From Candidatus Nanohalarchaeota archaeon (GTDB lineage Archaea > Nanohalarchaeota > Nanosalinia > Nanosalinales > Nanosalinaceae), in assembly GCA_022729355.1 (NCBI GenBank), contig JALDAN010000003.1, positions 1-41,541 of the forward strand: a DNA stretch of 41,541 nt. Reading direction: 5' to 3'. Positions 34,039-39,839 of this stretch are shown one piece after another; position 1 is the stretch's first letter, and every line of letters starts with the position of its first letter. The position numbers and the translations under genes are program-made. Under the pieces are notes generated by a model that worked only from the letters and a program-made list of their open reading frames with translations, did not search any database and was not told where the DNA came from.

Positions 34039-34293
34039 TTAACTGTATCTCCTCTCCACATGACCGAGGATCTTCTCCATCTTATCCTCTTTCTCCATAG
34101 TACTTGAAGCAAGCAGAAAATCCTGTGAGGCCTTGTAAAGAACTCCATCAAAACCATCTAGGCCTCTGACAGAATCCTTTTCCAGGAAAGCAAGTACTTC
34201 TTCTAGTGAACGATACAGCAACAGCCTTTTCTCAGCCACATCCTCTCTCTGAAGTGCCTGTTCATACTTCGTATTCGCTTCTTCAAGACTCAT
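34039..34293 (-). CDS. Hypothetical helical protein
   Basis: 84 aa from MSLEEANTKYEQALQRED; overlaps the upstream gene end by 11 nt, consistent with an operon. Confidence 0.5.
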   Translation of the reverse strand: MSLEEANTKYEQALQREDVAEKRLLLYRSLEEVLAFLEKDSVRGLDGFDGVLYKASQDFLLASSTMEKEDKMEKILGHVERRYS

Positions 34294-35185
34294 CGCCGAG
34301 CTCCTCCAGTAACAGCTCTCTGGCCTTACCTGCATCAGCCTTTCCATTAGTCCTCTGCATTATCTGGCCGATAAAAAAGTTTACAGCTGAATCCTGGCCA
34401 TCACGGAAATCCCTGACAGCATACGGATTTTCTTCAACTACATCCTCAACCACTTCTTCCAGATCGAAATCAGAGGCCTCCGGAAGACTTCCCTCAGTCG
34501 AAAGATGTTCGACAAGGTTCTGCAAGTGAGTCTGTCCGTCAGCACGCTCCAGAACATCCTCAATACGCTCCAGGTCAAGCCCTTCTCTATCAAAAGCCTT
34601 CAACGCATCAAGCACACGGTCAACACTGTAATCCTCTGAAAGATCCATGAAAGTCTTTCTGTACCCGTTTCTTACCACGAAACGTGCAGAGGCCTCCTCC
34701 AAGCCTTTCTCACGGACTTCCCTGATATCTTCTTCAGTTGATACCGCGAAATCATCTATTTCATAACTGAATTCGCTTTCTTCAAGGGCCTCTCTGAAGG
34801 CCTCTACGTCGATTATTACTGCTTTTTTTGTTTCTCCGACTGTATGAGATACTTCTTCTTTCTCGAATATTCTTTCATCTACCAGGTGCCTGAGTTGGGT
34901 GCTGAAAGGATGTACTGTGCCAGATTCAAAGCCTGTGATCTCTTTTGATTCTTCAGGCGGAATCATTCTGTATTCCGAGCCGAGCTTTCTCTCGGAAAGA
35001 TTTCTGTCACCCGGCAAAAGTACGTGATACTTTTCTCCATCAGACTCTATGATAAGTGATTTAACAATCTGTGATGTCTCAAGGCCTCTTTCACGGGCAG
35101 CATCGTCGCAGCTTTTCGTAGGATTGTCCTGGACTACCTCACTGTAATCTATCTCTTTTTCGTCGAGGTATTCATCGGCTTTGAT
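34283..35185 (-). CDS. YbaK/ProX-type aminoacyl-tRNA editing domain fused to a GatB tail (helical/YqeY) domain
   Basis: Frame extends upstream of the ORF-track start: IKADEYLDEKEIDYSEVVQDNPTKSCDDAARERGLETSQIVKSLIIESDGEKYHVLLPGDRNLSERKLGSEYRM...SGTVHPFSTQLRHLVDERIFEKEEVSHTVGE; C-terminus NPYAVRDFRDGQDSAVNFFIGQIMQRTNGKADAGKARELLLEEL. Start codon unclear (possibly ATC at 35185). Confidence 0.7.
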   Translation of the reverse strand: MKADEYLDEKEIDYSEVVQDNPTKSCDDAARERGLETSQIVKSLIIESDGEKYHVLLPGDRNLSERKLGSEYRMIPPEESKEITGFESGTVHPFSTQLRHLVDERIFEKEEVSHTVGETKKAVIIDVEAFREALEESEFSYEIDDFAVSTEEDIREVREKGLEEASARFVVRNGYRKTFMDLSEDYSVDRVLDALKAFDREGLDLERIEDVLERADGQTHLQNLVEHLSTEGSLPEASDFDLEEVVEDVVEENPYAVRDFRDGQDSAVNFFIGQIMQRTNGKADAGKARELLLEELGDES

Positions 35186-35191
35186 ATTTTC

Positions 35192-35536
35192 TCACCTCAG
35201 TTCCTCGTCTTCCGGATCGAAAGGCGGGGAAGTGATTATCAAGGCCTTGAACTCTCCTTCAAGAGCATGCCCCGTCTCCTCAGGCACGAAAACGAACTCT
35301 CCCTTCTCTACTTCGTGAGTTTCTTCACCGACGTGTATCTTTCCTTCTCCGTTGAGAATGTAGTAGGCCTTCTGGCTTCTCTCATTGAATATTTTTCTGT
35401 CCTTATCTCCTTCAGGATGATAGCCATCTACCTTTGAAAGCACTGAGTCAAAGTTGGCGTCTTCTGGTGCCTCGAAAAGATCGGTTATCTCTGTACTGTC
35501 ATCCACAAAGTAGGAGTCGCCTTCCTCAAACTTCAT
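35192..35536 (-). CDS. Cupin-domain protein
   Basis: YHPEGDKDRKIFNERSQKAYYILNGEGKIHVGEETHEVEKGEFVFVPEETGHALEGE. Confidence 0.85.
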   Translation of the reverse strand: MKFEEGDSYFVDDSTEITDLFEAPEDANFDSVLSKVDGYHPEGDKDRKIFNERSQKAYYILNGEGKIHVGEETHEVEKGEFVFVPEETGHALEGEFKALIITSPPFDPEDEELR

Positions 35537-35541
35537 AATCT

Positions 35542-36963
35542 TCAGTCCTCCAAGACTTCCAGTATTTTTTCACGAGCTGTTTTAGGATCAGCCTTACCCT
35601 GACTCTTCTGCATCACCTGTCCGACAAGGAAGTTGATGGCCTCTTCCTCACCTGACTCAAAGTCCTCAACAGCATCACGATTCTCATCAATAGCAGCCTC
35701 CACAAAAGAATCAATCTCGGACTCATCCGCCTTCAGAAGATCCTCTTCCTCAACAATCTCTTCAGGCCTTCTTTCCTCTCCAACTACTTCCCTGAGAAGC
35801 ATCTCAGCATTTCTATCCGAAATCTTTTCCTCACTGATCAAATCAAGCATGTACTGAATCGACTCAAAATCAAGGCCTGACTCACTGTAAGTCAATTCAT
35901 TGTAGTTCAGAACTTTCTTCAGATCGCCTGACATCCACGAAGCCACCAGACTAGAGTTGAACTCCTCTGCTAGTTCTTCGAAGTCCTCTGCCAGGGAGGC
36001 CTCTGTAATCAGTGATTCGACTAGTTTGTCTTTGAGGCCGTATTCCTCCTTGAAGCGTTCGAACTTCTCCTGCGGCAGCTCAGGAAGAGACTCTTTAATC
36101 CTTGTCCTTAATTCTTCATCGAGCTCCTGTCTTGTGAGGTCGGGATCGAAGATATATCCATAGTCTTCTTCCGTCTCCTTTTCTCTCATGGCTTCTGTGG
36201 CTCCTGTTCCCTGATTGAAGCTTCTTGTATGCTGTTCAACTTCCCGGCCTCTCTTCTTCCACTGTTTCTGACGTGAGATCTCGTAGTTGAGGGCTTTTTC
36301 GATATCTTTCGTTCCTGTAATATTCTTTACTTCGACTCTTTCTCCGCCTTCTATCGATACGTTAGCGTCAGTCTTGATAGAGAAATCTGATTCAGGCCTG
36401 TAAAGCCCCAGATACTGCATCATCTGCGCCAGTTGCTGTAGATATGCACGGGCCTCTTTCGGGCTTCTGAAGTCCGGATCCGTCACGATTTCGATTAAAG
36501 GTGTGCCTGCTCTGTTGTAGTCGACTTTCGAGTAATCTGAGTCAGATACGTTGCCTCCTACGTGTTTCATCTTCGCCGGATCTTCCTCGATGTGAATACG
36601 CTTGATGCCTACCTCCTTCTTTTCATCTCCTACCTTGATCTGTTTCTCTCCGTCCTCGCCAACAGGTATCTCGTACTGAGTGATCTGGTAGTTTTTGGAC
36701 ATGTCAGGGTAGAAATAAGTTTTCCTGGAGAAAAACACGTCTTCATTTACTTCACAGTCAAGTGCTTCAGAGGCCTTTACAGCCTGATTTACGACTTCTT
36801 CATTCAGTCTTGGCTTGCTTCCGGGATGTCCGAGGCATGTCTCACATACATGAGTATTTGGCTCATCCGCTTCCTCATTCGGGCAGCCACAGAAAAGTTT
36901 GGTCTCTGTATCAAGCTGAACGTGTGTTTCAAGGCCTATCTTCACATCAGTCATAGAAAACAA
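35542..36963 (-). CDS. gatB: Asp/Glu-tRNA amidotransferase subunit B
   Basis: KIGLETHVQLDTETKLFCGCPN, CETCLGHPGSKPRLN, KNYQITQYEIPVG; YqeY-like tail. Confidence 0.95.
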   Translation of the reverse strand: MFSMTDVKIGLETHVQLDTETKLFCGCPNEEADEPNTHVCETCLGHPGSKPRLNEEVVNQAVKASEALDCEVNEDVFFSRKTYFYPDMSKNYQITQYEIPVGEDGEKQIKVGDEKKEVGIKRIHIEEDPAKMKHVGGNVSDSDYSKVDYNRAGTPLIEIVTDPDFRSPKEARAYLQQLAQMMQYLGLYRPESDFSIKTDANVSIEGGERVEVKNITGTKDIEKALNYEISRQKQWKKRGREVEQHTRSFNQGTGATEAMREKETEEDYGYIFDPDLTRQELDEELRTRIKESLPELPQEKFERFKEEYGLKDKLVESLITEASLAEDFEELAEEFNSSLVASWMSGDLKKVLNYNELTYSESGLDFESIQYMLDLISEEKISDRNAEMLLREVVGEERRPEEIVEEEDLLKADESEIDSFVEAAIDENRDAVEDFESGEEEAINFLVGQVMQKSQGKADPKTAREKILEVLED

Positions 36964-37017: not shown

Positions 37018-38436
37018 TCAGTGATCCCTGTTCCAGACGAATTCTGCCATCTGTCTATACTTCTGACAGGCCTCCTCATTTATTAGATCCATATCATACA
37101 GTTCATCAACAGCTCCGAACGCCGTATCAAGATACTCTCCGGCTTTCTCGTTAGAGGCCTCCTCTCCGTATTCATTGATTACAGTCGTCAGCCACTGATT
37201 CTCCCAGTCTTGTGCCTGCCCTATTTCTACACCCATTTCTTCTGCTGTCTCCTGCATCTCCTCAGTAACTTCATCGTATGCGCCGTCAAAGACGTCAAGG
37301 AACAGTTCAGCGTATTCCTCTTCTTCCTGACGCAGTGCTTCCTCTGTCTGTAATGCCGGGAAAGTTATCTTCCTGTTCTCTATATCGGTGATAGACTTAC
37401 CGGTGTTTTCAGGCCTGAAAACTTCTATAGCATCGTCGCCAGCCTGGAACAGTCTGTTGAAGTTTGTCATGTATTCATCGAACAGGCCTCTTATCTGTCG
37501 TCTTTCAGTTTCTTCATACTGTGAGTCACGGAGATGGTCTTCCACCATTATATCCACTCCGGATTTGAACAGTGCTCCGGTCTTTCCGGCGATCATCTGC
37601 TCATAATCATCAATTGAGGCCTCTCTGAGCTGCATATCCTCCATGTCGATATCTCTTTTCTGTCCATCATTAAGATCGGCTTCCATCTGGAAGAATATTT
37701 GTGAGGCTGTCTTCGGGATTCCATTGAACTGTTCGTATGAATCATTCACTATACTGTTTATGGCCTCGTTACCCCAGGCCTCCACTTTATTTCCATCAAG
37801 CACTGATTGTTTCCAGCTATCCTCGCCGTAAAGCGCCCTGTTAACCCTCTCTGTAGTAAGCTTTCCACGTCTCAAGACGTCATCATCCATGTCATCATCG
37901 TGTTCAAGTGAAGAGGCATGGATTATTTCCTGGGCAGCACCAACCATTGCACCTTTGTAAGAAGTCTCTCCTTCAAGACCGAACTCTGTCAAAAGCGTCA
38001 TGAAAGGCCTCAGTCTTTTTCCTCCTCTCAGGATGTAGTCAATCGAGAAAGCATCGGAGGCCTCTACTTTATCTTCGAAAATCGAGTTTTCTATCGCCTG
38101 ATCATGTCCGTGATTGTCAGCATCTACTGCTAATTTCAGTATTCTTTCGTAGAGCTGTCCTTGTCCGTGTCTGCCTCCGTTCTTTATTTCTTCGACCATT
38201 TCTTCGTCATTTGTGATGCCTATTTCCTGTTCAAGCGACTCTATTACTTCGGAGGCTACTTTCTTGAGAACTTCTGTGTAGATGAAGTTGTCTACAAGAT
38301 CTTCCTTGGTACTGACTAGAAGTTCTTTGGAAGTATTTTCTCCTTCAAGAACTGAATCTATTTGCTCGAAGTCAGATTCAAAAGACTCAAAGTCCGGATT
38401 TACTCCTCCCCTAGTTTTCACTTCCCCTGCAGACAT
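37018..38436 (-). CDS. Divergent polyprenyl diphosphate synthase-like protein with N-terminal extension
   Basis: YILRGGKRLRPFMTLL, SSLEHDDDMDDDVLRRGKLT, FQAGDDAIEVFRPENTGKSITDIENRKITFPAL. Confidence 0.8.
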   Translation of the reverse strand: MSAGEVKTRGGVNPDFESFESDFEQIDSVLEGENTSKELLVSTKEDLVDNFIYTEVLKKVASEVIESLEQEIGITNDEEMVEEIKNGGRHGQGQLYERILKLAVDADNHGHDQAIENSIFEDKVEASDAFSIDYILRGGKRLRPFMTLLTEFGLEGETSYKGAMVGAAQEIIHASSLEHDDDMDDDVLRRGKLTTERVNRALYGEDSWKQSVLDGNKVEAWGNEAINSIVNDSYEQFNGIPKTASQIFFQMEADLNDGQKRDIDMEDMQLREASIDDYEQMIAGKTGALFKSGVDIMVEDHLRDSQYEETERRQIRGLFDEYMTNFNRLFQAGDDAIEVFRPENTGKSITDIENRKITFPALQTEEALRQEEEEYAELFLDVFDGAYDEVTEEMQETAEEMGVEIGQAQDWENQWLTTVINEYGEEASNEKAGEYLDTAFGAVDELYDMDLINEEACQKYRQMAEFVWNRDH

Positions 38437-38465: not shown

Positions 38466-39839
38466 CTATTGATCAGTCATAAAGGTGTCTGCGATATTCA
38501 GGACTTTCTGCTCTTCAAAATGATTTCCTACAATATGGAGGCCTGTTGGCATATCTCTGCTTTCGCCATTAGGTACGCTTATCATCGGCATACCTGCAAG
38601 ATTCGGGCCTACTGTTAAAGTATCTATAGCATAAACTTCTTCAGGACTCATAGATTCTGCTTCATCTATCTTAGGTGCTATGTTCGGCATTGAAGGACTG
38701 ATAACTGCATCGTAGTCCTCAAATTTTTCTCTGTATTGATTAATTATCTTTGTTCGTACTTCAGCCGCCTTGATGTAGTACTGATCCCTGTATCCTGCCT
38801 GGCGAGTGTACGTTCCAAGAAGAATTCTTCTCTTGGCTTCTTCTCCAAATCCTTCGCTTCTTATTTCCGAAAAGTATTCGTTGAAGTCTTCAAACTCTTC
38901 AGGATCTTTTTCAAGCCCGTAACGCATCCCAGCCATCTTCGCCAGATTCGTGGAGGCCTCACTCATCGCCAGAACATAATAGGCCGGTACAGCAACGTCT
39001 GCTGAAAGAAGAGGCATATCCACCTCCTCAACTTCAAAGCCTTTCTCCTCCAGTATATCGATGGATTTCTGGAAGTTCTCCATAACTCCTTCCTCAACAC
39101 CTTCAAGCTCCAGATACTGCTTCGGAACAGCCAACCTGCCAGAGATATTTTCAAGATTCTGGCTGTAGGCCTCTACCTCTCTATCTACTGTTGTCTGATC
39201 GCCTTCATCTTTGCCTGCGATTACTTCGAGGCCTTTCGCTGCTCCGTAGACTGTTTGCGCCAGTACTCCGATCTTGTCTAGTGAGTTGGCGTAATCAACG
39301 AGGCCGTGACGTGATACTCTTCCGTAAGTTGGCGTGAGGCCTACTACTCCGTTGTATGCAGCAGGATTTGTGATTGATCCTCCTGTAGACTCTCCAATAG
39401 AGATAACAGGGTGATCAAGTGCCGCTACAATAGCTCCTGCACCTCCCGAAGACCCACCGACTACTCTTTCCGGATCGTGTGGATTTCTAGGTGTTTCAAA
39501 AGCACAGTTAGTGGAAAATGAACCGAATCCAAATTCATCCTGCTGTGTCTTGCCGTAAAAAGTTGCACCTTCCCCTTTGAGTCTTTCTACAACAGTAGCA
39601 TCAAATACAGGCCTGTAATCCTCCAGTATCTTGCTTCCTGCAGAAGTAGTAACATTTTCAGTACAGATCGCATCTTTAACTACGAAAGGAATCCCGTTCA
39701 AAGAGGCCTCCTGCTCCTCAGCATCTATTTTCTTTATTTCCCGCATGAAGTTGAGTTCATCGTTTTTCTCCTTCAGTTCCTGTTCAAAGCTTTCGTGATC
39801 GAACTCCTGACTTCCTTCAACGTATTTCTTCAGGCCCAT
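38466..39839 (-). CDS. gatA: Asp/Glu-tRNA amidotransferase subunit A (amidase signature)
   Basis: FVVKDAICTENVTTSAGS, VVGGSSGGAGAIVAA, GGSITNPAAYNGVVGLTPTYGRVSRHGLVDYANSLDKIG. Confidence 0.92.
   Translation of the reverse strand: MGLKKYVEGSQEFDHESFEQELKEKNDELNFMREIKKIDAEEQEASLNGIPFVVKDAICTENVTTSAGSKILEDYRPVFDATVVERLKGEGATFYGKTQQDEFGFGSFSTNCAFETPRNPHDPERVVGGSSGGAGAIVAALDHPVISIGESTGGSITNPAAYNGVVGLTPTYGRVSRHGLVDYANSLDKIGVLAQTVYGAAKGLEVIAGKDEGDQTTVDREVEAYSQNLENISGRLAVPKQYLELEGVEEGVMENFQKSIDILEEKGFEVEEVDMPLLSADVAVPAYYVLAMSEASTNLAKMAGMRYGLEKDPEEFEDFNEYFSEIRSEGFGEEAKRRILLGTYTRQAGYRDQYYIKAAEVRTKIINQYREKFEDYDAVISPSMPNIAPKIDEAESMSPEEVYAIDTLTVGPNLAGMPMISVPNGESRDMPTGLHIVGNHFEEQKVLNIADTFMTDQ

What the first reader, a model, noticed from the sequence alone, without database searches (positions are those of the whole stretch)
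34283..35185. Aminoacyl-tRNA editing domain fused to a GatB-type tRNA-binding tail
N-terminal half matches YbaK/ProX trans-editing domains (NPTKSCDDAARERGLETSQIVKSL, LPGDR, SGTVHPFS...LVDE...EVSHTVGE). The C-terminus aligns with the tail of the nearby GatB: VVEENPYAVRDFRDGQDSAVNFFIGQIMQRTNGKADAGKARELLLEEL vs AIDENRDAVEDFESGEEEAINFLVGQVMQKSQGKADPKTAREKILEVL. It sits in a gatB-cupin-YbaK run. Inferred function: a proofreading factor using the GatB tail to find amidotransferase substrate tRNAs (Gln/Asn) and hydrolyse mischarged amino acids. I do not know of a described fusion of this type.
Basis: partly seen in the sequence, partly recalled or inferred. Interest (0 to 1): 0.75.

Follow-up and report, generated by a model that had tools for sequence, protein, structure and literature searches.

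The report
tRNA-proofreading enzyme with amidotransferase tail
Salt-loving nanohaloarchaea carry, right behind the gene of the enzyme that finishes asparagine-tRNA, a protein that joins a tRNA-proofreading enzyme to that enzyme's tRNA-gripping tail. Another archaeal phylum has fused or inserted a related proofreader directly into the same enzyme, which suggests an undescribed quality check on this route of the genetic code.

Summary
The ORF at 34283-35185(-) encodes an INS/YbaK-superfamily editing domain (Pfam tRNA_edit, 2e-16) joined to a GatB helical/YqeY tail (GatB_Yqey, 6e-17). AlphaFold models it at pLDDT 93, and the editing half matches solved INS enzymes. The catalytic Lys and the GXXXP loop are kept.
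It is a conserved nanohaloarchaeal family, found in 12 of 28 genomes of the phylum. In 11 of the 12 it sits in a gatA-gatB operon. Relatives without it have gatB joined directly to the same downstream gene, so the site is cleanly occupied or empty.
These genomes use GatDE for Gln. Window genome: non-discriminating AspRS, no AsnRS found; so GatCAB there, and the likely target, is tRNA-Asn. Its D-loop is short; tRNA-Asp and tRNA-Glu have long ones.
In another archaeal phylum a related INS domain is fused to the N-terminus of complete GatB, or inserted into GatB's zinc-knuckle loop. INS and GatB are therefore joined in three topologies. I found no description in the open-access papers searched.
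Best reading: a trans-editing deacylase that grips short-D-loop tRNAs through a GatB-type tail. The tRNA and especially the amino-acid substrate are inferred, not shown.

The parts
34283..35185 (-). INS-YqeY fusion gene (300 aa), probable ATC start at 35185, stop 34285-34283
   Evidence: start aligns with ATG/TTG of all relatives
34751..35185 (-). INS/YbaK-superfamily aminoacyl-tRNA editing domain, residues 1-145
   Evidence: Pfam PF04073 2.4e-16; AF2 model pLDDT about 95 in this half; Foldseek 1wdv TMt 0.80, 2z0k 0.78, 1dbu 0.80
35060..35062 (-). codon of Lys42, the conserved catalytic lysine of the INS superfamily
   Evidence: invariant in all relatives aligned; aligns with the corresponding Lys of E. 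coli YbaK, YeaK and ProRS-INS
34907..34921 (-). GXXXP loop, residues 89-93 (GTVHP)
   Evidence: G89, T90, H92, P93 invariant; same columns as the GXXXP loops of the references
34298..34747 (-). GatB-type tail: helical plus YqeY domains, residues 147-296
   Evidence: Pfam PF02637 6.2e-17; profile match to GatB 3al0/2df4 and, over residues 149-297, to GatE 2d6f_C; best structure hits of the tail model are GatB
35192..35196 (-). GGTGA ribosome-binding sequence, overlapping the cupin stop codon, 6 nt before the ATC start
   Evidence: sequence
35192..35536 (-). small cupin protein between gatB and the fusion (present in G000, G003, G005, G018; absent in others)
   Evidence: Pfam PF07883 3.2e-9; neighbourhood tables
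35542..36963 (-). gatB (Asp-tRNA(Asn)/Glu-tRNA(Gln) amidotransferase subunit B)
   Evidence: NF004012 3.3e-168
38466..39839 (-). gatA
   Evidence: Pfam Amidase 9.9e-115; homologous gene in the same operon in relatives
34039..34293 (-). 84-aa conserved gene directly downstream (ATG overlaps the end of the fusion gene); follows the fusion in 9 genomes and follows gatB in genomes lacking the fusion

Best explanation
The gene encodes a trans-editing aminoacyl-tRNA deacylase of the INS (YbaK/ProXp) superfamily in which the amidotransferase tail (helical + YqeY domains) supplies the tRNA grip. Mechanism: the tail holds the elbow/D-loop of tRNAs with small D-loops, foremost tRNA-Asn, the GatCAB substrate in this lineage. 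The INS domain, sitting where the GatB catalytic cradle would be, receives the CCA end and hydrolyses a wrong amino acid, probably a small one of the Ser/Thr/Ala class. Shown by sequence and model: both domains, conserved catalytic residues, operon with gatA/gatB, INS-GatB fusions in another phylum. Inferred: catalysis, tRNA identity, amino acid.
For: Domain matches; AF2 pLDDT 92.9 with INS fold hits; Lys and GXXXP kept. Present in 12 of 28 nanohaloarchaeal genomes and next to gatB in 11 of the 12. The same site between gatB and the 84-aa gene is empty in relatives. Carriers all have gatB; of the four genomes where gatB was not detected, two (G021, G024) were typed as having AsnRS. The window genome has ND-AspRS and no AsnRS found, plus GatE. 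tRNA-Asn has a short D-loop, Asp/Glu are 3 nt longer. Another phylum has INS fused to, or inserted in, GatB. The INS domains fall in a clade with E. coli YeaK, a Ser/Thr-tRNA deacylase (PMC11286415). GatB/GatE tails select small D-loops (PMC4810234, PMC4027206). Between two congeners, dN 0.10 against dS 1.9 for the INS half.
Against: No biochemical data. Several other tRNAs (Thr, Gly) also have short D-loops. Half of the gatB-bearing genomes lack the gene, so it is not required for the Asn pathway. The tail evolves faster than the INS half and lacks about 25 residues of the GatB helical domain. Its structural match to GatB is moderate (TM 0.51).
Confidence: 0.58

Rival explanations
1. Safety valve of the indirect pathway: the INS domain hydrolyses Asp-tRNA(Asn), the obligatory misacylated intermediate, when it escapes amidation by GatCAB.
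For: Operon with gatA/gatB; carriers have gatB, and the window genome uses ND-AspRS with no AsnRS found; the recurrent INS-GatB unions in another phylum fit an enzyme that sees Asp-tRNA(Asn).
Against: Characterised INS enzymes act on small residues (Ala, Cys, Ser, Thr, Abu: PMC11295145, PMC11286415); the domain groups with YeaK. It would run a futile cycle against GatCAB unless kinetically gated. The absence from genomes without detected gatB is not significant by itself (0 of 4 against 12 of 24, hypergeometric about 0.09, computed by hand).
Confidence: 0.15
2. General-purpose Ser/Thr(-like) trans-editing enzyme: the tail is an unspecific tRNA-elbow anchor that raises affinity, as with the C-terminal domain of plant ProXp-ala; the gatB neighbourhood reflects only where the tail came from.
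For: YeaK/ProXp-ST1 grouping and its broad tRNA range (PMC11295145); plant ProXp-ala CTD improves tRNA binding (PMC9425024); short D-loops are not unique to tRNA-Asn; in G027 the gene is away from gatB.
Against: Conserved gatB linkage in 11 of 12 genomes and INS-GatB fusions elsewhere. The tail clade is separate from the neighbouring GatB tails on a long stem, so it is not a fresh copying accident.
Confidence: 0.22
3. Non-catalytic accessory subunit: a scaffold or regulator that brings tRNA or AspRS to GatCAB.
For: Operon position.
Against: Catalytic Lys and GXXXP invariant in carriers, with the INS half more conserved than the tail. Lys is lost (Arg) only in the tail-less G024 relative, in a genome without detected gatB.
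Confidence: 0.05

Closest known systems
YeaK / ProXp-ST1 (INS superfamily, Ser/Thr-tRNA deacylase)
   Same: INS fold, catalytic Lys, GXXXP; nearest characterised relative in the tree
   Different: single domain, no tRNA-binding tail, not linked to gatB
Plant ProXp-ala with C-terminal domain (PMC9425024)
   Same: INS editing domain with an added helical C-terminal domain that helps bind tRNA
   Different: a CTD of unknown origin that dimerises; substrate Ala-tRNA(Pro)
Protist ProRS with N-terminal YbaK/ProXp-ala domain; bacterial ProRS INS
   Same: INS domain joined to, or inserted into, a tRNA-charging enzyme
   Different: partner is ProRS, not an amidotransferase
GatB / GatE tail (helical + YqeY) and GlnRS-YqeY (2hz7)
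   Same: homologous tRNA-binding tail
   Different: the head is an amidotransferase or synthetase catalytic domain, not a hydrolase
INS-GatB fusions of the G066 phylum (this work)
   Same: INS domain of the same wider clade united with GatB
   Different: GatB is complete; INS is N-terminal or inserted in the zinc-knuckle loop

Membership tests
INS superfamily (YbaK/ProXp trans-editing deacylases) | INS/YbaK fold | tested here: met
   PF04073 2.4e-16; Foldseek 1wdv, 2z0k, 1dbu TMt about 0.8
INS superfamily (YbaK/ProXp trans-editing deacylases) | conserved catalytic Lys and GXXXP loop | tested here: met
   K42 and G89-P93 in all 12 carriers
INS superfamily (YbaK/ProXp trans-editing deacylases) | hydrolysis of a mischarged aminoacyl-tRNA | not testable with these tools
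   needs deacylation assays
ProXp-ST1 / YeaK subfamily | phylogenetic grouping with YeaK | tested here: inconclusive
   same larger clade, support 98/79, but on its own long stem and not nested among YeaK-like sequences
ProXp-ST1 / YeaK subfamily | single-domain protein | tested here: not met
   carries a GatB tail
GatB (amidotransferase subunit B) | GatB_N catalytic cradle | tested here: not met
   no PF02934 match in the fusion; bits far below all GatB equivalog cut-offs
GatB_Yqey tail domain | homology over the helical + YqeY region | tested here: met
   PF02637 6.2e-17; GatE 2d6f_C aligned over residues 149-297; tail model's best hits are GatB
GatB_Yqey tail domain | binds the tRNA elbow/D-loop | not testable with these tools
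   known for GatB and GatE (PMC4810234, PMC4027206); not measured here

The most novel reading that the evidence does not exclude
A dedicated proofreading step exists in the tRNA-dependent (transamidation) route to Asn-tRNA. An INS editing module has been joined to the amidotransferase in three ways: on a separate GatB tail, at the N-terminus of GatB, and inserted inside GatB. It deacylates wrongly charged tRNA-Asn at or near the transamidosome.
Probability: 0.42. Interest if true: 0.78.

Novelty: new variant of a known kind. Interest (0 to 1): 0.64.

Why it matters
Trans-editing enzymes are described as essentially single-domain proteins that lack dedicated RNA-binding domains (PMC11295145), and I found no description of editing tied to the amidotransferase pathway in the open-access papers searched. 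A hydrolase carrying the amidotransferase's own tRNA-reading tail, plus INS-GatB fusions in another phylum, would make fidelity of the indirect Asn pathway directly testable. It would also show how one elbow-reading module is reused to aim different chemistries at the same tRNA.

Tried and rejected
Recent tandem copy of the neighbouring gatB tail: rejected; fusion tails form one clade (100/100) on a long stem outside the nanohaloarchaeal GatB tails. Common origin of the two fusion types: left open; LG+G4 joins them, LG+C20 does not, AU test p 0.39. Compensation for missing Ser/Thr editing: no support; tRNA_SAD proteins are present in all 28 genomes with or without the fusion, and the archaeal ThrRS editing domain occurs only in two genomes without it. 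Prolyl-tRNA function inferred from the name YbaK: not favoured, because the window genome has a separate solo YbaK in a different clade. Other archaea: in a further sample of 397 genomes, INS-GatB fusions were listed only in the G066 phylum; the match list was truncated. Single-sequence scan of genome contigs found nothing; the alignment scan gave the named organisms.

Full report
OBSERVATION. The minus-strand frame 35191-34283 is open. Every full-length relative starts at the equivalent position with ATG or TTG followed by K/R-A-(D/H) ('MKAD'), and in the window a GGTGA lies 6 nt upstream of the ATC. I take the ATC as the start, or as a base change/sequencing error in the start codon.

DOMAINS. 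Pfam finds tRNA_edit (PF04073) at 21-131 with E 2.4e-16 and GatB_Yqey (PF02637) at 193-296 with E 6.2e-17. NCBIfam matches GatB, GatE, GlnRS-YqeY and YbaK/ProRS models only as partial hits below their equivalog cut-offs. A profile of ten relatives hits, among solved structures, GatB tails (3al0, 2df4, 3h0l), the INS protein 1wdv, GlnRS-YqeY (2hz7) and, over residues 149-297, the GatE tail (2d6f_C). The C-terminal half is therefore the helical plus YqeY tail, not just the YqeY end. AlphaFold2 on ten sequences gave pLDDT 92.9, pTM 0.78. Foldseek's best PDB hits for the whole model are INS proteins (1wdv TMt 0.80, 2z0k 0.78, 1dbu 0.80), with GatB further down. For the tail alone the two hits under E 0.001 are both GatB (9a6e 2.9e-5, 3ip4 6.7e-4, TM 0.51). 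The catalytic Lys (K42) and the GXXXP loop (GTVHP, 89-93), described as the catalytic features of the superfamily (PMC11286415), are in all carriers and align with E. coli YbaK, YeaK and ProRS-INS.

DISTRIBUTION AND SITE. The search with the fusion found 12 carriers among the 28 genomes of the phylum held: G000, 001, 002, 003, 005, 006, 007, 010, 012, 016, 018 (cut by the contig end) and 027. Named records are nanohaloarchaea: Nanosalina J07AB43, Nanosalinarum J07AB56, SG9, M3_22, B1-Br10 bins, QJJ-5. In 11 of 12 the gene follows gatB directly or after a small cupin gene; in G027 it is elsewhere. In nine genomes a conserved 84-aa-type gene follows it. In G004, G008, G009, G013, G015 and G017 gatB is followed directly by that same small gene and the same convergent AAA gene, and G011 has only a gap of about 460 bp. 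This is a clean occupied/empty site. Between two congeners (G010, G016) the INS half has dN 0.10, dS 1.9; the tail is less conserved (69% identity against 83%); dS is near saturation.

PATHWAY CONTEXT. All 28 genomes match the GatE model, 26 over its cut-off, G000 among them. GatB was detected in 24; in G014, G019, G021 and G024 it was not, G014 and G019 being 79% and 61% complete. The class II synthetase family PF00152 gave one full-length match in G000, on C12, and that protein is the aspartate--tRNA(Asn) ligase model NF003483/TIGR00458 well above asnS. The SG9 (G003) and G010 enzymes scored the same way. I read this as ND-AspRS without AsnRS in G000, with the caution that the genome is 89.6% complete. 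Two gatB-lacking genomes, G021 and G024, have an AsnRS by NCBIfam; G019 has several PF00152 matches that I did not type. The inference is that GatCAB here makes Asn-tRNA(Asn) while GatDE makes Gln-tRNA(Gln). G000 tRNAs: tRNA-Asn has its anticodon at 34, tRNA-Gln at 35, tRNA-Asp and tRNA-Glu at 37, so the D-arm differs by 3 nt. GatB and GatE tails are known to select small D-loops (PMC4810234), and deleting them abolishes GatFAB activity (PMC4027206). tRNA-Thr (33) and Gly (34) are also short, so selectivity is plausible, not proven.

INS-GatB UNIONS ELSEWHERE. G066, from another archaeal phylum (93 genomes held), has a 619-aa ORF with INS in front of complete GatB. Similar proteins occur in G208, G173, G218, G197 and G200, with contig-cut copies in G219 and G170 and a split copy in G186. 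Reading them shows two topologies. INS lies N-terminal to GatB in G066, G208, G173, G170 and G186. In G218, G197, G200 and G219 INS is inserted inside GatB, between 'KLFCxCPT' and 'PNSxxCxxCLGMPG', in the zinc-knuckle loop. Most GatB of that phylum and of 397 sampled archaea show no INS in the rows listed (lists truncated). In an INS tree (148 columns, LG+C20) nanohaloarchaeal fusions form one clade (99/89), GatB-fused INS another (100/100), and both fall with E. coli YeaK and related solo proteins (98/79), apart from the solo YbaK of the window genome. A single origin of the two fusion types is neither required nor rejected. A tail-less relative in G024, which has AsnRS and no detected gatB, has Arg in place of the catalytic Lys.

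INTERPRETATION. Shown: a conserved gene for an INS-superfamily protein with intact catalytic residues carrying an amidotransferase tRNA-binding tail, encoded with gatA/gatB, and repeated physical union of INS with GatB. Inferred: tail-guided binding of short-D-loop tRNAs, chiefly tRNA-Asn, and hydrolysis of a small wrong amino acid at the CCA end by the INS domain in place of the GatB cradle. YeaK is a Ser/Thr-tRNA deacylase (PMC11286415), which makes a small residue more likely than Asp. I put the hydrolase-with-tRNA-tail reading near 0.85, tRNA-Asn as main target near 0.45, and a Ser/Thr/Ala-class substrate near 0.4.

LITERATURE. Full-text searches (open-access papers only) for YbaK+GatB, trans-editing+INS, transamidosome+deacylase, the Pfam names and nanohaloarchaea+amidotransferase gave no description of such a fusion. 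A 2024 review states that INS members are single-domain apart from ProRS INS and that trans-editing domains generally lack RNA-binding domains (PMC11295145). Plant ProXp-ala with a tRNA-binding CTD (PMC9425024) and protist ProRS with an N-terminal INS domain (PMC11286415) are the nearest precedents.

Noticed in passing
window 35183-35185: The gene appears to start with ATC (AUC) where all relatives have ATG or TTG; non-canonical start, point change or sequencing error.
   Followed up: partly
window 34039-34293 and downstream of gatB or the fusion in 15 or more nanohaloarchaeal genomes: Conserved small helical gene of unknown function in the gatAB operon, sometimes carrying an N-terminal extension (L038, L042, L045); Pfam gives no family.
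   Followed up: partly
window 37018-38436: Prenyl-synthase-like gene lies between gatA and gatB; homologues in the same operon in G010 and, split, G001.
   Followed up: no
L052, L053, L054, L055 (G218, G197, G200, G219): INS editing domain inserted in the zinc-knuckle loop of GatB, a different topology from the N-terminal fusions in the same phylum.
   Followed up: yes
L035:4418-4837 (G024): Tail-less relative of the fusion's INS domain with Lys to Arg at the catalytic position, in a genome with AsnRS and no gatB detected; possibly a relic.
   Followed up: partly
G008, G020, G023 (L070-L072): Three nanohaloarchaea have a long (about 600 aa) PF00152 protein, bacterial-type AspRS in the one typed (G008), unlike the archaeal ND-AspRS of the others; none carries the fusion.
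   Followed up: no
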